Both the position numbers and the translations under genes were made by a program. A DNA stretch of 52,427 nucleotides from Gaiellales bacterium (GTDB lineage: Bacteria; Actinomycetota; Thermoleophilia; BMS3ABIN01): the NCBI GenBank assembly GCA_003599855.1, contig QZKG01000033.1, positions 1 through 52,427 on the forward strand, given 5' to 3'. The notes beneath the pieces are model-generated. The model had not been told where the DNA came from. It did not search any database and saw only the letters and a program-made list of their open reading frames with translations. Of this stretch, positions 4,162 to 10,887 are shown in pieces (the stretch's first letter is position 1; each line of letters opens with the position of its first letter).

Positions 4162-6597
4162 ATGGCTGCCAGGACAAGGAAGCAAGCGGCTGCCAGAGGC
4201 GGCCGCGCCGGCAAGCGCCAGCGGCGTTCGGCGCGCAAGCGCGGCAACGACCTCAGGCACCTGCGCGAGCTGGGCGGGCTGGCCCTCATCGCCCTGGGAG
4301 TCTTCCTGGCCTTCGTCGTCTACCTCGGCTGGTCGGGCGGCCTGGTGGGCTCAGCGCTCGAGACGGGTCTGCGCTTCATGTTCGGCATCCTGTCGTTCCT
4401 GGCGCCGCCGGCTTTCGTCGCGCTGGGGGCCTGGCTGATCTTCCCGGAGATGCCCCGGGGGCCCGTGGGGCTGCAGGTGGGCGTGGGGCTCCTGGCGGCG
4501 GCCCTGTTCCTCATCGCCGGCGCCAACACCTTCTCCATCCTCGGCAGCGGCGCCGGCCACGGCGGGTTCTTCTCCATCGACAATTTTCCCGGGCGCGGCG
4601 GCCTCGTGGGTGAGACGCTCTACTGGCTCACCGCATCCCTGGTGGGCGACATCGGCAGCACCGTGGCCGCGGTGTTTTTGCTACTGGCGGCGGCGTTCCT
4701 CATCACCGGGGCGTCGGTCAGGACGGTGCTCCTGCATTCCGGTCTCGGAGCCCGGCGCGCGGCGGCGCGGGCGCGCCGGACCACCAGGCAGCTGGGCGAG
4801 TCCCTCGCCGAGAAAAGGTCGAGGGCGCGGGGGGAAGCCGGCAGCGCGGCAGCGCCTTTCGGCGCCGGCCCGGAAGGTGCCGGTGAAACCCCCGGGCAGG
4901 CCCTGAACGCCCCGCTGGAGGCGCCCTTCAACGGCGCCAGCGATTTTCCTGACATCTACGGCGGCCGGGAACCGGCGCTCAGCCTGGTGGTGGACGAAGT
5001 TGATGATGAAGCTCAGGATCAGGCGCCCACGGAAGTGATCGTCGCTGGCGGGCAGGTGGAGCCGGTCCAGGAAGAGCTCTTCCCCCGGGACGACGAGGGC
5101 GAGGCGACGGAATACGTCTTGCCCAGCCCCGACCTCCTCTACCGCAGCGCCGAGGCGGCTGCCGATGACGGCAGCGTCAACGAGCGCGTCGGCCGGGTGC
5201 TGGAGGAGACACTGGCCAGCTTCGGTATCGAGGCGCGCGTGACCGGCGCCGTCACCGGGCCGCGGGTCACCCGCTACGAGATCGAGCTGGCGCCGGGCAT
5301 CAAGGTCTCCCGGGTCACCAGCCTCAAGAACGACCTGGCCATGGCCCTGGCGGCCACCGACATCAGGATCCTCGCGCCGATCCCGGGAAAGCGGGCCGTG
5401 GGCGTCGAGGTGCCTAACCCGCGCTCGAACCTGGTGACCCTGGGCGACATCTACCGCAAGGCGCCCGGCGGCCTCGAGCCGCTCACCGCCTGGGTGGGCA
5501 AGGACATCTCCGGCAACCCCGTCTTCGCCAACCTTGCCAAGATGCCGCACCTGCTGGTGGCCGGCACCACCGGCTCCGGCAAGAGCAGCTGCATCAACTG
5601 CATGGTCTCCTCGATCCTCCTGAGCAGCACCCCGGACGAGGTGAAGATGATCCTCATCGACCCCAAGACGGTGGAGCTCAACCACTTCGAGGGCATCCCG
5701 CACCTGCTGACGCCGGTGGTCACCAACATGAAGAACGCAGCCAACGTGCTGGCGAACCTGGTGGAGGAGATGGAGTCGCGCTACAGCAGGATGCAGCTGG
5801 TGAAGGCCAAGCACATCGACGACCTCAACCACGTGCGCAAGATGCGCGGCGAGAAGCCGCTGCCCTATATCCTCCTCATCGTGGAGGAGTTCGCCGACCT
5901 GATGATGGTCTCGCCCACGGACGTGGAGGACGCCATCATCCGCCTGGCGCAGAAGTCCCGGGCGGTGGGCATCCACTTGGTGCTGGCTGTGCAGCGGCCC
6001 TCGGTGGACGTGGTCACCGGCCGCATCAAGGCCAACGTGCCCTCCAGGATCGCCTTCCGGGTCTCGTCCCAGGTCGACTCGCGGGTCATCATCGACGCCG
6101 CCGGCGCCGAGAGCCTGCTGGGTTCGGGCGACATGCTCTTCCGCCCGGTGGGCTCCAACCACATCCAGCGCGTCCAGGGCGCCTACGTCTCGCCCGAGGA
6201 GATCAAGCTGCTCACGGACCACGCCCGGAGCATGAAGACCCCGGATTTCCGCTACGAGCTGCTGGAGGGCAGGGAGATCGACGAGGACGAGAAGCTGTCC
6301 TCCAACGATGACGAGCTGCTGCCGGAGGCGATGCAGCTGGTCATCACCCATGGAACCGCGTCGGTGTCATTCCTGCAGCGGCGGCTCAGGGTCGGCTACT
6401 CCCGCGCCGGCCGCCTGATAGACATGCTGGAGCAGAAGGGCGTCATCAGCGGCTACGAGGGCAGCAAGCCCCGCCGGGTGCTGGCCGGCGAGGAGGACCT
6501 GGAACGGCTGCTGGATGATTTCCGCGGCGACGACGAGGGAGAGCCAGAGCCGGAGCCGGAGCCCGAGGAGGTCGCCGCCTTCACCGAGGGCGACTGA
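4162..6597 (+). CDS. ftsK: DNA translocase FtsK/SpoIIIE
   Basis: Septum-anchored ATP-driven DNA pump for chromosome segregation. The 811 residues comprise a basic N-terminus, four or so membrane helices (about 35-200), a charged linker, the alpha/beta translocase domain with Walker A GTTGSGKSS (about 468-476) and Walker B LLIVEEFADLMM (about 570-580), the AQRPSVDVVTG motif, and a C-terminal winged-helix gamma domain that reads KOPS-type sequences. The last residues are an acidic Glu-Pro repeat followed by a short tail. It starts 12 bases after rnj with a GGGAAGGGG site and converges on the KimA gene. Confidence 0.96.
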   Translation: MAARTRKQAAARGGRAGKRQRRSARKRGNDLRHLRELGGLALIALGVFLAFVVYLGWSGGLVGSALETGLRFMFGILSFLAPPAFVALGAWLIFPEMPRGPVGLQVGVGLLAAALFLIAGANTFSILGSGAGHGGFFSIDNFPGRGGLVGETLYWLTASLVGDIGSTVAAVFLLLAAAFLITGASVRTVLLHSGLGARRAAARARRTTRQLGESLAEKRSRARGEAGSAAAPFGAGPEGAGETPGQALNAPLEAPFNGASDFPDIYGGREPALSLVVDEVDDEAQDQAPTEVIVAGGQVEPVQEELFPRDDEGEATEYVLPSPDLLYRSAEAAADDGSVNERVGRVLEETLASFGIEARVTGAVTGPRVTRYEIELAPGIKVSRVTSLKNDLAMALAATDIRILAPIPGKRAVGVEVPNPRSNLVTLGDIYRKAPGGLEPLTAWVGKDISGNPVFANLAKMPHLLVAGTTGSGKSSCINCMVSSILLSSTPDEVKMILIDPKTVELNHFEGIPHLLTPVVTNMKNAANVLANLVEEMESRYSRMQLVKAKHIDDLNHVRKMRGEKPLPYILLIVEEFADLMMVSPTDVEDAIIRLAQKSRAVGIHLVLAVQRPSVDVVTGRIKANVPSRIAFRVSSQVDSRVIIDAAGAESLLGSGDMLFRPVGSNHIQRVQGAYVSPEEIKLLTDHARSMKTPDFRYELLEGREIDEDEKLSSNDDELLPEAMQLVITHGTASVSFLQRRLRVGYSRAGRLIDMLEQKGVISGYEGSKPRRVLAGEEDLERLLDDFRGDDEGEPEPEPEPEEVAAFTEGD

Positions 6598-6630: not shown

Positions 6631-8442
6631 CTACTCCGTCAGCCGCATGGGCACGCTGGTGGAGACGACATCCTTCCTGAAGAGCAGCATCCCCTTGATG
6701 ATGAGCGCTGTCTGGTTGTGCAGCAGGTGGTGCCACCATTTCGTCGGCACGAACTCCGGCAGCACCACGGTGACCACCCCGTCCTTGTTCTTGCCTCGCA
6801 CGTAGTCGATGTAGCGCATCAGGGGGCTGATGACAGAGCGGTAGGGCGACGCCAGCACCACCAGCGGCACCTCCATGCCGTAATCCTCCCACTTGGCTTC
6901 GATCTTCTCCGTTTCCGCCGGGTCGAAGCAGACGTAGACAGCGGTGACGTCGTCGGAGATGGCCTTGGCGTACTTCACCGCTGCCAGCACCGCCCGGTGC
7001 ACGCCCGATACCGGGATGATGACGGCGTGGTGGCTGAACTCGCCTGGCGCCGCCACCCCTTCGAGGGAAAGCTGCTCGGCGATGGAGCGGTAGTGGCTGT
7101 TGACGCGGCGGGTCAGATAGACGAGGACCGGGATGGTGATGACCACCAGCCAGGCGCCGTGGGTGAACTTGACCGCGGCGATGACGGAGAGCACCAGGAG
7201 CGTGGTGGCTGCGCCGAAACCGTTGATGGCAGCGCCGCGGCGCCAGCCCCGGCCCCGCTCCCGGAACCAGTGGCGCACCATGCCGGCCTGGGCCAGCGTG
7301 AAGGAGAGGAAGACGCCCACGGCATAGAGCGGGATGAGAGCGTGGGTGGCGCCGCCGAAGATGACGATGAGCAGCGCAGCGAAGAAGCCCAGGATGATGA
7401 TGCCGTTGGAAAAGACGAGCTTGTCGCCGCGGCTGGCCAGCTGCCGGGGCAGGAAGCGGTCGGCAGCCATCACCGAGGCCAGCCGGGGGAAGCCGGCGAA
7501 GGAGGTGTTGGCTGCCAGGAAGAGGATGAGCGTGGTGGCGAACTGCACCAGGTAATAGAACGGCCCCGTGGAGAAGACTGCACGCGCCAGCTGCGAGAGG
7601 ACGGTCTCGCTCTCGCTGGGGATGATGCCGTAGTGGTCCGCCAGGAAGGTGATGCCGATGAAGAGCGAGCCAAGCAGCACCGCCAGCCACACCAGGGTCA
7701 CGGAAGCGTTGCGCGCCTCGGGCTTCCTGAATGCCTGGACGCCGTTGGACATGGCCTCGATGCCGGTCAGCGCCGCGCAGCCGGAGGCGAAGGCCCTGAG
7801 GATGATGAAGAGCGGCAGGTAGTCGCTGGGCGGCTGGACGTATTCTGGCATGGGCGGGTGGTCCTGGAAGAAATAGCGGTAGATGCCGTAGCCGATCAGC
7901 ATGAACAGGCTGGCCAGAAAGACATAGGTGGGCACCGAGAAGATATAACCCGCCTCGCGCACGCCCCGCAGGTTGATGAACATCAGGATGACGATGCCGG
8001 CGATGCCGATGAGCACACGGTGCTCGTGGATGGCAGGGAAGGCTGATGTCAGCGCCGCGACGCCGGCGGTGATGCTCACGGCCACGGTCAGCACGTAATC
8101 GATCATCAGCGAGGCGCCCGCCACCAGCCCGGCATTGACGCCGAGGTTCTCCCTGGTGACGACGTAGGCGCCGCCGCCGGACGGGTAGGCGTGGATGATC
8201 TGGTAATACGAGGTCGCCACGATGGCGATGAGGGCGGCGATGCTGATGGAGATCGGCATCGAGTAGCCCAGCATCACGGTGCCTGCCAGCACCAGCGCCA
8301 GCAGGATCTCCTCCGTCGCGTAGGCGACCGATGAGAGCGCGTCGGACGAGAAGATGGCCAGGCCCATGGCCTTGGGCATCCGTTCGTGCTGCTCGCGGAC
8401 GCTCTCGATGGGCTGCCCCAGCAGCATCCTTTTCAGGGTCAT
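6631..8442 (-). CDS. kimA: KimA-type potassium importer (APC superfamily)
   Basis: A 603-residue APC-superfamily permease with about 12 membrane helices and a cytosolic C-terminal domain starting around HAVIIPVSGVHRA. The N-terminus, LKRMLLGQP followed by FSSDALSSVAYATEEILL, matches what I recall of Bacillus KimA (YdaO), a proton-coupled K+ importer of about 607 residues. The ATG at 8442 is preceded by AGGAGGCGGG; a longer frame to 8532 would begin inside the riboswitch expression platform and is rejected. The upstream c-di-AMP riboswitch independently supports a potassium role, since c-di-AMP generally shuts down K+ uptake. A general amino-acid permease is the alternative reading. Confidence 0.88.
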   Translation of the reverse strand: MTLKRMLLGQPIESVREQHERMPKAMGLAIFSSDALSSVAYATEEILLALVLAGTVMLGYSMPISISIAALIAIVATSYYQIIHAYPSGGGAYVVTRENLGVNAGLVAGASLMIDYVLTVAVSITAGVAALTSAFPAIHEHRVLIGIAGIVILMFINLRGVREAGYIFSVPTYVFLASLFMLIGYGIYRYFFQDHPPMPEYVQPPSDYLPLFIILRAFASGCAALTGIEAMSNGVQAFRKPEARNASVTLVWLAVLLGSLFIGITFLADHYGIIPSESETVLSQLARAVFSTGPFYYLVQFATTLILFLAANTSFAGFPRLASVMAADRFLPRQLASRGDKLVFSNGIIILGFFAALLIVIFGGATHALIPLYAVGVFLSFTLAQAGMVRHWFRERGRGWRRGAAINGFGAATTLLVLSVIAAVKFTHGAWLVVITIPVLVYLTRRVNSHYRSIAEQLSLEGVAAPGEFSHHAVIIPVSGVHRAVLAAVKYAKAISDDVTAVYVCFDPAETEKIEAKWEDYGMEVPLVVLASPYRSVISPLMRYIDYVRGKNKDGVVTVVLPEFVPTKWWHHLLHNQTALIIKGMLLFRKDVVSTSVPMRLTE

Positions 8443-8475
8443 CCCGCCTCCTGTTACTTTTCTGAATCCAGGCAC

Positions 8476-8504
8476 AAAAAAACCGCCGCAACACAGCGGT
8501 CGGT
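8476..8504 (-). terminator. Intrinsic terminator of the c-di-AMP riboswitch
   Basis: Read on the minus strand, a GC stem (ACCG-CCGC against GCGG-CGGT) is followed by seven T residues. It sits between the riboswitch aptamer and the KimA start, as expected for an off-switch in which ligand binding favours premature termination. Confidence 0.82.
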
Positions 8505-8534
8505 AGCTGGCCGTTGTTGGTTGCCCTTCCATTC

Positions 8535-8652
8535 TGCCTGCGAGGTTAGCTGACGGATTGGGCCCTGGAAGTGGCCCTTCCCTGCTCCAGGGAATTAGCC
8601 CCGATTGATTGGGTCCCCCGCACCCGCGACCAGCGCGGGTCTAGGCGGCATG
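8535..8652 (-). promoter_or_regulatory. c-di-AMP riboswitch (ydaO-yuaA class) ahead of kimA
   Basis: On the minus strand the leader contains the hallmark blocks of the ydaO aptamer in the correct order: GCGGGGGACCCAAT, then GGGGCTAATTCC, then AATCCGTCAGCTAACCTCG, then GCAGGC closing the first helix with GCCT at the 5' side. I identify it from remembered consensus, not a covariance search. It is preceded by a promoter and followed by a terminator, 90-odd bases before the KimA start. Known members repress potassium and osmolyte transporters when c-di-AMP is high. Confidence 0.93.
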
Positions 8653-8670
8653 TGTTATTTCCAAAACGGG

Positions 8671-8699
8671 ATATTACTCCTGTTTCACGCCCGGCGCAA
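8671..8699 (-). promoter_or_regulatory. Sigma-70-type promoter for the riboswitch-kimA transcript
   Basis: On the minus strand TTGCGC and TAATAT are separated by 17 bases. The predicted start, near 8664, is about a dozen bases before the riboswitch aptamer. It lies downstream of the hypE stop, so kimA need not depend on hydrogenase-operon transcription. Confidence 0.6.
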
Positions 8700-8768
8700 G
8701 AATGTCTTTTGACCATTAACCGCCGGGAAAATGAAGAATTTGAATCAGGTGAGGGGGCGGTGGGCCGC

Positions 8769-9785
8769 TCAGCAGATGCGTGGCAGCTGCTCGCCGGTGG
8801 GCATGGAGATGACGCGGCGGCTGCCGATGAGCGTGCGGGCGTGGACGCGGGGCGCCGCCGCAGCCTCCACCCGCCCGATCAGGGCGGCATCCCGGCCATG
8901 GGGGTTGGAGCGCATGGCAGCCAGAACGGCCTCGGTGTCTTCCTGGGCCATCACCGCCACGAGCTTGCCCTCGTTGGCCAGTATCAGCGGATCGAGCCCC
9001 AGCAGCTCGCAGGCGGAGCGCACTTCGGTGCGGTAGGGGATCGCCGCTTCATCGATCTCGATGGCGACGCCGGATGCCTGGGCGATCTCATTGAGCGTGG
9101 CGGCCAGGCCCCCGCGGGTGGGGTCGCGCATGACCCTTATCCCCGGCGCGGCCGCGAGCATGTCACGCACCAGCGGCCACAGGGGCGCGCAGTCGCTGAC
9201 CAGGCCGGTGGCGACCCCGATGCCCTCGCGCTGGCTCAGCACGGTGATGCCGTGGTCGCCGATGGTACCGCTGACGATGACGGCGTCGCCGGGCCTGGCG
9301 CCGGCGGCCGAGATGTCCACGCCGTCCGGCACCCGGCCGATGCCGCAGGTGGTGACGAACACGCCGTCAGCAGCGCCCTTCTCCACCACCTTGGTATCGC
9401 CGGCGATGATGTCGGTCCCCGCTTCGGCCCCGGCCTCGCTCATCGATTCCACTATGCGTTCGAGGTCGTGAAAGGCAAAACCCTCTTCGATGATGAAGCC
9501 CGCGGTCAGGTGCATGGGCTCGGCCCCGGCCACTGCCAGGTCGTTGACTGTGCCCGTGACCGCCAGGCGGCCGATATCGCCCCCGGGGAAGAAGAGTGGG
9601 GAGACCACGTGGCTGTCGATGGTGCAGGCCAGGCGCCCCTGGAAATCGAGGGTCGCTGCGTCCTCCATGCGCACGAGGATGGGGTTGGACAGGCCGCGGG
9701 CGAACACAGAATCCACCAGCTGCTGCGTCAGGCGGCCGCCGCTGCCGTGGGCCAGCAGTATCTGTCCCGACCTGTCAGCTCTCAT
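8769..9785 (-). CDS. hypE: Hydrogenase maturation factor HypE
   Basis: PurM/selenophosphate-synthetase-fold ATPase that dehydrates the carbamoylated C-terminal Cys thiocarboxamide to thiocyanate, giving the cyanide ligand of the active-site iron. The 338 residues include AHGSGGR, GTVNDLAVAGA, DPTRGGLA and the essential C-terminal PRIC ending at the last Cys. The start at 9785 overlaps the hypD stop by 11 bases, indicating translational coupling; the longer frame to 9926 would run deep into hypD. It is the last gene of the ten-gene hydrogenase operon. Confidence 0.96.
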   Translation of the reverse strand: MRADRSGQILLAHGSGGRLTQQLVDSVFARGLSNPILVRMEDAATLDFQGRLACTIDSHVVSPLFFPGGDIGRLAVTGTVNDLAVAGAEPMHLTAGFIIEEGFAFHDLERIVESMSEAGAEAGTDIIAGDTKVVEKGAADGVFVTTCGIGRVPDGVDISAAGARPGDAVIVSGTIGDHGITVLSQREGIGVATGLVSDCAPLWPLVRDMLAAAPGIRVMRDPTRGGLAATLNEIAQASGVAIEIDEAAIPYRTEVRSACELLGLDPLILANEGKLVAVMAQEDTEAVLAAMRSNPHGRDAALIGRVEAAAAPRVHARTLIGSRRVISMPTGEQLPRIC

Positions 9786-10887
9786 ACTGGTAATAAGCGG
9801 CGCAGGTGCCCTCGGAAGATACCATGCAGGGGCCCACGGGGTGTTCCGGCACGCAGGCGCCGCCGAAGAGCCCACAGTCGCGGGGCGTCTTCTGTCCCGT
9901 GAGGATGGCGCCGCAGATGCAGCCACGCGGCTCCCGGGAGTAGCTCACGTCCACGGGGAAGCGGCGGAGAGCGTCATGGGCGGCGAACTCCTCGCTGATG
10001 GCAAGGCCGCTGCCAGGGATCGTTCCCAGCCCGCGCCAGGCTGCGTCGCAGGGCTCGAAGACGTGCTCCATCAGCGCCAGGGCCGCCGGGTTGCCGCCGG
10101 CGCGGACGCCGCGCGTGTACTGTACCTCCACCTGGGAGCGGCCCTCGGCCTTCTGGCGGGAGAGCATGATGAGCCCCTGGAGGATGTCAGCCGGTTCGAA
10201 CCCGGTGACGACACAGGGTATGCCGTAGCGTGAGGCTACCGGGGCGTAGGCTTCCGGCCCGATGATGGCGGTGACGTGGCCGGGGCAGAGGTAGGCATCC
10301 ACCGCCAGCTCCGGCGCCGACGACAGCGCCTCCAGGGCCGGCGGCACCACCTTGTGCACCGACTGGACGAAAAAGTTGTCGACCCCGGTCTGGCGCGCCT
10401 CCAGGAGCGCGGCCGCCACCGTCGGCGCGGTGGTCTCGAAGCCGACGCCGAAGAAAACGACGCTCCTGTCAGGGTTCTCGCGGGCGATCTTCAGCGCGTC
10501 CAGCGTGGAGTAGACCACCTGCACCCGGGCTCCCTGCCCGCGGGCTTCGGCCAGGCCCATCCTCGTGCCGGGGACGCGCAGCATGTCGCCGAAGGTGGTG
10601 GCGATGACGTCTGGCAGAAGAGCCAGCTCGATGAAAGCGTCGATGTCGGCGTTGGCTGTGACGCAGACGGGGCAACCGGGCCCGGAGATCAGCGTCAGCT
10701 CCTCGGGCACGGCCTGGCGGATGCCATGGCGCGATATCGCCATCGTATGGGTGCCGCAGACCTCCATGACCTTGAGCGGCACGCTGTTGCCAGCCACCAG
10801 CTCCTCCAGCAGGCCGCGTGTCTGGGGACCGCTGCGGAACTCATCGAGGAAGGCCAGGCGGCCGGCGTCAGTCATCTTCGGCGACAT
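9775..10887 (-). CDS. hypD: Hydrogenase maturation factor HypD
   Basis: Iron-sulfur scaffold on which the Fe(CN)2CO unit is assembled together with HypC. The 370 residues hold VMEVCGTHT, SGPGCPVC, the FGVGFETTAP segment, and the C-terminal cysteine-rich part with RGCICG, RDCGLFGGAC and GPC that binds the cluster. An alternative start at 10875 would give an ATGACTGA overlap with the hypC stop; 10887 is the longest reading, with GAAGGGA directly before it. Both couple translation to hypC. Confidence 0.96.
   Translation of the reverse strand: MSPKMTDAGRLAFLDEFRSGPQTRGLLEELVAGNSVPLKVMEVCGTHTMAISRHGIRQAVPEELTLISGPGCPVCVTANADIDAFIELALLPDVIATTFGDMLRVPGTRMGLAEARGQGARVQVVYSTLDALKIARENPDRSVVFFGVGFETTAPTVAAALLEARQTGVDNFFVQSVHKVVPPALEALSSAPELAVDAYLCPGHVTAIIGPEAYAPVASRYGIPCVVTGFEPADILQGLIMLSRQKAEGRSQVEVQYTRGVRAGGNPAALALMEHVFEPCDAAWRGLGTIPGSGLAISEEFAAHDALRRFPVDVSYSREPRGCICGAILTGQKTPRDCGLFGGACVPEHPVGPCMVSSEGTCAAYYQYES

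What the first reader, a model, noticed from the sequence alone, without database searches (positions are those of the whole stretch)
8476..8699. Complete c-di-AMP riboswitch unit controlling a KimA-type potassium importer
Promoter, ydaO-class aptamer blocks, terminator and a strong ribosome site stand in order before a KimA homologue. This ties c-di-AMP signalling to potassium uptake in this lineage and places it between ftsK and the hydrogenase operon.
Basis: partly seen in the sequence, partly recalled or inferred. Interest (0 to 1): 0.7.

Follow-up and report, generated by a model that had tools for sequence, protein, structure and literature searches.

The report
c-di-AMP riboswitch controlling potassium importer KimA

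Summary
Confirmed. Rfam RF00379 matches the minus strand at 8657-8520 (77.9 bits, gathering 38, E 1.8e-16). A rho-independent terminator follows (8501-8476), then AGGAGG (8452-8447) and kimA (8442-6631, 603 aa). phmmer E to B. subtilis KimA is 7.6e-166, with identical K+-site and H+-coupling residues and most c-di-AMP-contact residues. The weak-looking promoter (TTGCGC-17-TAATAT) recurs in 11 of 12 related leaders, against 0.7% of shuffles. The genome encodes DisA behind clpC-radA. It has no second RF00379 copy, no KdpA or TrkH, and no Kup beyond KimA itself. In the family the slot hypBFDE-[riboswitch]-kimA-><-ftsK is old. In one relative trkA/trkH occupies it; elsewhere the riboswitch precedes kdpA. 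Sister families of the class (Thermoleophilia) mostly place the same aptamer before cell-wall hydrolases. This is therefore a new member of a known kind. It contributes to a modestly interesting family-level pattern: an actinobacterial potassium regulon using terminators, several truncated aptamers, and a window aptamer with rare junction substitutions. Function (ligand binding, termination) is inferred, not shown. Which strand breaks the terminator without ligand is unresolved.

The parts
8671..8699 (-). promoter: TTGCGC (8699-8694), 17 nt, TAATAT (8676-8671), with conserved CAGGA just before the -10
   Evidence: weak by consensus (one search finds none at its threshold); conserved in 11 of 12 family leaders vs 0.7% of shuffles
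8520..8657 (-). c-di-AMP (ydaO/yuaA) riboswitch aptamer; P7 pseudoknot CUUCC (8571-8567) with GGAAG (8530-8526)
   Evidence: RF00379, 77.9 bits, E 1.8e-16; helix covariation in 12 leaders
8476..8501 (-). intrinsic terminator GACCGCUGUGUUGCGGCGGUU + U tract
   Evidence: hairpin kept in all 12 leaders with compensatory A-U/G-C change
8447..8452 (-). Shine-Dalgarno AGGAGG, 4 nt before ATG
   Evidence: sequence
6631..8442 (-). kimA, K+/H+ symporter, 603 aa
   Evidence: phmmer to KimA 6s3k/8b70 E 7.6e-166; D36,Y43,T121,T230,Y377,E233 all identical; R337, L461, P479, F568, H579, N580, Q581 identical
4162..6597 (+). ftsK, convergent neighbour; not part of the unit
   Evidence: Pfam FtsK_alpha/SpoIIIE/gamma; synteny
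8769..9926 (-). hypE (hydrogenase maturation), upstream neighbour on the same strand; not part of the unit
   Evidence: Pfam AIRS/AIRS_C; family synteny hypB-hypF-hypD-hypE

Best explanation
The leader is a transcriptional 'off' riboswitch for c-di-AMP. Transcription starts just upstream of the aptamer. When K+ is plentiful, DisA-made c-di-AMP binds the aptamer and stabilises P1 and the P7 pseudoknot, so the terminator at 8501-8476 forms and kimA is not transcribed. When c-di-AMP falls (K+ limitation), an upstream strand competes for the terminator, RNA polymerase reads through, and KimA imports K+ with H+. c-di-AMP probably also inhibits the KimA protein directly, giving two-level control. 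Shown by sequence: every part and its order, homology, DisA in the genome, conservation across the family. Inferred from the B. subtilis and B. thuringiensis systems: ligand binding, direction of switching, and protein inhibition. Unresolved: the exact antiterminator. One candidate is aptamer CAGC pairing with terminator GCUG; the other is the P1 5' strand GCCGCC pairing with terminator GGCGGU.
For: RF00379 hit twice its gathering score; terminator plus U7; promoter conserved in 11/12; helices covary in 12 leaders. KimA identity and all functional residues (PMC6994465, PMC10284832). DisA at clpC-radA-disA and a DHH/NrnA-like candidate phosphodiesterase. In 12 family leaders the riboswitch stands before K+ importers only: kimA, kdpA, or trkH. 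Transcriptional 'off' behaviour is established for kimA and kdp leaders of Bacillus (PMC6488665, PMC9960051). CGCUG is invariant in all 12 terminator 5' arms.
Against: No binding or transcription data. The leader's MFE is not better than shuffles (z -0.8), which is expected for a GC-rich pseudoknotted RNA that nested folding cannot model. The window aptamer differs from the family at near-invariant junction positions: GGGGCUAAU for GGGGCGAAU, AG...CAA for UA...GAG, UCCG for CCCG. It scores 77.9 against 82-93 bits for most relatives. Most of these changes recur in other above-threshold hits (L014, L140) and can be read as a non-canonical pair replaced by G-C, but reduced affinity is possible. 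The antiterminator pairing is predicted in only 3 of 12 leaders by simple folding.
Confidence: 0.93

Rival explanations
1. The aptamer is drifting: its junction substitutions have weakened or abolished c-di-AMP binding, leaving a terminator that only attenuates kimA constitutively.
For: Three clustered departures from near-invariant positions. Close relatives have demonstrably truncated aptamers that keep the terminator (L086, L084, L155), so decay happens in this family.
Against: The score is still twice the gathering cut-off. P1, P2, P6 and P7 and the CAGCUAACC core are intact and the promoter is kept. Equivalent substitutions occur in other strong hits (L014, L140).
Confidence: 0.05
2. Control is mainly translational (the aptamer or terminator region hides the ribosome site) rather than transcriptional, as for nlpC in Corynebacterium glutamicum.
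For: The same class contains leaders in which the P7 3' strand is itself the likely ribosome site, including a kimA leader in family f5 (L085) and probably many cell-wall genes. Translational control is proposed for C. glutamicum nlpC (PMC9960051).
Against: Here the ribosome site lies 23 nt beyond a good terminator and is not part of P7. A terminator with U tract is kept in all 12 family leaders.
Confidence: 0.05
3. The gene is an amino-acid permease and not a K+ importer (best Pfam hit is AA_permease_2).
For: Pfam AA_permease_2 E 7e-34; K_trans just below its cut-off.
Against: B. subtilis KimA itself is an APC-fold protein; 45% identity over 600 residues and all K+-site residues identical. 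Riboswitch relatives in the family precede undisputed K+ importers (KdpA, TrkH).
Confidence: 0.02

Closest known systems
Bacillus subtilis kimA (ydaO) c-di-AMP riboswitch, RF00379
   Same: Same aptamer family, intrinsic terminator platform, KimA as the controlled gene, DisA present.
   Different: Actinobacterial host (class Thermoleophilia by contig identity); single copy in the genome; different neighbours (hypE, ftsK); junction substitutions in the aptamer.
Bacillus thuringiensis kdpFABC c-di-AMP riboswitch (PMC6488665)
   Same: Transcriptional off-switch for a K+ importer; family relatives of the window place the same unit before kdpA, in two cases with a KdpD-like protein that lacks the kinase part.
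   Different: The window itself controls kimA. That paper found riboswitch-controlled kdp restricted to Bacillales; here it occurs in Actinomycetota (G009, G012, G014, G016, and a partial aptamer in G006).
Actinobacterial cell-wall c-di-AMP riboswitches (rpfA, nlpC; PMC9960051)
   Same: Same aptamer and same phylum.
   Different: Those precede cell-wall genes and, for nlpC, probably act on translation; the window has a terminator and a K+ importer.

Membership tests
c-di-AMP (ydaO/yuaA) riboswitch, RF00379 | covariance-model score above gathering threshold over the whole aptamer | tested here: met
   77.9 bits vs 38, model 1-134
c-di-AMP (ydaO/yuaA) riboswitch, RF00379 | conserved helices and P7 pseudoknot | tested here: met
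   95.3% of cells paired over 12 leaders, 9 pairs changed on both sides; P1, P6 and P7 paired in every row
c-di-AMP (ydaO/yuaA) riboswitch, RF00379 | near-invariant junction nucleotides (GGGGYGAAU, UAGGG, CCGARCCCG, CAGCUAACC) | tested here: inconclusive
   CAGCUAACC kept; GAA->UAA, UA/GAG->AG/CAA, CCCG->UCCG in the window; the first also seen in L140 and the second (as AG/CAG) in L014 out of 88 aptamers, the last in the window alone
c-di-AMP (ydaO/yuaA) riboswitch, RF00379 | binds c-di-AMP | not testable with these tools
   needs in-line probing or ITC
Transcription-terminating riboswitch platform | intrinsic terminator between aptamer and gene | tested here: met
   8501-8476, conserved in 12 leaders
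Transcription-terminating riboswitch platform | identified mutually exclusive antiterminator | tested here: inconclusive
   two candidates, neither conserved enough to decide
KimA (KUP-family K+/H+ symporter) | full-length homology to solved KimA | tested here: met
   residues 2-599 aligned, E 7.6e-166
KimA (KUP-family K+/H+ symporter) | K+ site D36, Y43, T121, T230, Y377 and proton residue E233 | tested here: met
   all identical; roles from PMC6994465
KimA (KUP-family K+/H+ symporter) | c-di-AMP site (R337, V457, L461, P479, H579, N580, Q581, S582) | tested here: met
   six identical, V457I and S582T conservative; residues from PMC10284832
KimA (KUP-family K+/H+ symporter) | K+ transport activity | not testable with these tools
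   needs complementation assay

The most novel reading that the evidence does not exclude
In this thermoleophilian family the c-di-AMP riboswitch class controls K+ importers through transcription termination, whereas sister families mostly place it before cell-wall hydrolases, probably acting on translation. Within the family the switch is inherited by place while the importer behind it is exchanged (kimA in most, trkA/trkH in G002 at the same ftsK-hyp slot, kdpA elsewhere). Repeated loss of the aptamer's 5' half leaves terminator-only leaders.
Probability: 0.55. Interest if true: 0.4.

Novelty: new member of a known kind. Interest (0 to 1): 0.27.

Why it matters
It extends the c-di-AMP/K+ circuit known from Firmicutes to an actinobacterial lineage in which this riboswitch class has been described mostly before cell-wall genes. 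No other K+ importer of the KimA, Kdp, Trk or Kup types was found in this 91%-complete genome, so the switch may gate most K+ uptake. The family as a whole offers natural variants for studying how a riboswitch regulon changes: same aptamer with different importers, terminator or ribosome-site platforms, intact or truncated.

Tried and rejected
Strict sigma-70 scan of 8000-9000 gave no promoter; comparative conservation rescued it. MFE against shuffles for the leader was uninformative (z -0.8). A conserved antiterminator could not be pinned down. The idea that the window aptamer's junction changes are unique was rejected for two of three after comparing 88 aptamers. A functional link to hydrogenase was considered; only synteny supports it. 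Primary crystal-structure papers of the aptamer are not held, so which pocket contacts the changed bases make was not checked. A first downstream-gene script picked wrong strands and was replaced.

Full report
The observation. On the minus strand the order is: hypE stop (8769), promoter (8699-8671), aptamer (8657-8520), terminator with U tract (8501-8476), AGGAGG (8452-8447), kimA ATG (8442) to stop (6631). Infernal gives RF00379 at 8657-8520 with 77.9 bits against a gathering score of 38, E 1.8e-16, over model positions 1-134. It is the only RF00379 match in the 2.35-Mb, 77-contig assembly, which is 90.7% complete.

The promoter is poor by consensus (TTGCGC, TAATAT) and the strict scan does not report it. 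A TTG-(17 or 18 nt spacer)-TAnnAT or near-variant element stands 9-13 nt upstream of the aptamer match in 11 of 12 family leaders, against 0.7% of mononucleotide shuffles. The bases CAGGA directly before the -10 are also conserved; in the 52-kb window the motif CAGGANTANNAT occurs only here.

Structure. Over 12 family leaders the aptamer helices, the P7 pseudoknot and the terminator are 95.3% paired, with 9 pairs changed on both sides. All 500 shuffles and all slid versions fall below this. The structure was hand-annotated from one row (G011), so the paired percentage leans towards it; the both-sided changes (P2, P6, P7 C-G to U-A, terminator A-U to G-C) are the firmer part.

The gene. The 603-aa product matches B. 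subtilis KimA over its full length (E 7.6e-166; 268 of 600 aligned positions identical). The K+ residues D36, Y43, T121, T230 and Y377, the proton-coupling E233, and the tunnel residue D117 are identical; roles are from PMC6994465. Of the c-di-AMP contacts described in PMC10284832, R337, L461, P479, H579, N580 and Q581 are identical, and V457 and S582 are conservatively replaced. Direct inhibition of the protein by c-di-AMP is therefore plausible but inferred.

The circuit. The genome has one DAC protein, a full-length DisA (NCBIfam 469.5 bits, cut-off 201) in the order clpC-radA-disA-carD-like (clpC, radA and carD named from sequence by eye). It also has a DHH protein resembling NrnA, below the equivalog cut-off, which is a candidate phosphodiesterase. 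No KdpA, TrkH or Kup other than KimA was found. In a 91%-complete assembly, absence is provisional.

The family. Contig identity places the class: G197:C1 is 6,359,369 bases long, the published length of the Conexibacter woesei chromosome (PMC3035278), a member of class Thermoleophilia. G057:C12 has the length and content of an Actinomycetes MAG contig. The window's family (f1) has 18 other genomes held. In G005, G011, G013, G018 and G006 the order hypF-hypD-hypE-riboswitch-kimA is kept, with convergent ftsK beyond in G005 and G018. G009 keeps the same order at C11 but with a truncated aptamer. G002 carries trkH-trkA-riboswitch-trkH in the same ftsK-hyp slot, and no kimA. In G009, G012, G016 and G014 a riboswitch precedes kdpA (G014 by reading the partial protein). 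In two of these the operon ends in a KdpD-like protein of 642-649 aa that stops before the kinase part of the 895-position model. PMC6488665 reported riboswitch-controlled kdp as seemingly restricted to Bacillales, so these relatives widen that range.

The contrast. In families f6, f7 and f9 of the class, genomes usually hold 2-8 RF00379 matches. Of 17 downstream proteins scanned there, 15 carried cell-wall domains (PG_binding_1, DPBB/lytic transglycosylase, Peptidase M23, or a weak NlpC/P60 match) and none a K+ importer. There the start codon usually lies about 20-35 nt after CAGCUAAC, which leaves no room for a terminator and suggests translational control, as proposed for C. glutamicum nlpC (PMC9960051). 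G057 (f5) has kimA behind an aptamer whose P7 3' strand GGAAGGA is itself the likely ribosome site. Among leaders examined, the same gene is thus served by two kinds of platform.

Doubts. The window aptamer departs from the family at GGGGCGAAU (UAA), at the UA...GAG junction flanking P6 (AG...CAA) and at CCCG (UCCG). Among 88 aptamers the first recurs in L140 and the second in L014. In the second, a non-canonical A.G is replaced by G-C, as it is by A-U in L109, L128 and L133. The third is unique. The window score is at the low end of the family's direct hits. Binding is probable, but its strength is unknown. The antiterminator is not identified. Before the terminator's 3' arm is made, CAGC of the aptamer pairs with GCUG of the terminator in the window, L072 and L077. 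The full-leader centroid instead pairs the P1 5' strand with the terminator's 3' arm. CGCUG is present in all 12 terminator 5' arms.

Verdict. The unit itself is ordinary and filed as a new member of a known kind. The family-level pattern is the part worth a specialist's glance.

Noticed in passing
L086:6260-6390 (G009:C11): kimA leader with the same promoter and terminator but only the last part of the aptamer (ACCUCGCAGGC...GGAAGGGCA); the rest is missing. The same genome has another kimA with an intact riboswitch (L076).
   Followed up: partly
L084:7360-7560 and L155 (G007): In G007 both kimA and kdpA leaders have lost the riboswitch: only a terminator-like hairpin before kimA, and a degenerate 3' half aptamer plus terminator before kdpA; disA is retained.
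   Followed up: partly
L075:3420-3570 (G006:C113): kdpA leader with an intact 3' half aptamer whose 5' half is replaced by what reads like the end of a yceD (DUF177) gene; rearrangement or assembly error.
   Followed up: no
L079:12539-14488, L077:11718-13646: KdpD-like proteins of 642-649 aa at the end of riboswitch-controlled kdp operons that stop before the kinase domain, recalling the non-kinase KdpD family of NCBIfam.
   Followed up: partly
L053, L054, L055, L056, L058: Second, longer KimA-like proteins (open frames 719-806 aa, about 46% identical over the first 460-470 residues) in several family genomes; C-terminal part not KimA-like and not identified.
   Followed up: no
window 8727-8690 (-): Inverted repeat CCCGGCG-N24-CGCCGGG spanning the -35 region upstream of the riboswitch; possible operator or chance in GC-rich DNA.
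   Followed up: no
L083:3513-5072, L086:8331-9890: A gene of 519 aa (TMEM260-like, O-mannosyltransferase-like membrane protein in L083) sits between ftsK and kimA in relatives but is absent between them in the window.
   Followed up: partly
family leaders, e.g. L078: GGGCA right after P7 and UGCCC right after the U tract are complementary in many leaders, so that read-through RNA could enclose the terminator hairpin; role unknown.
   Followed up: no
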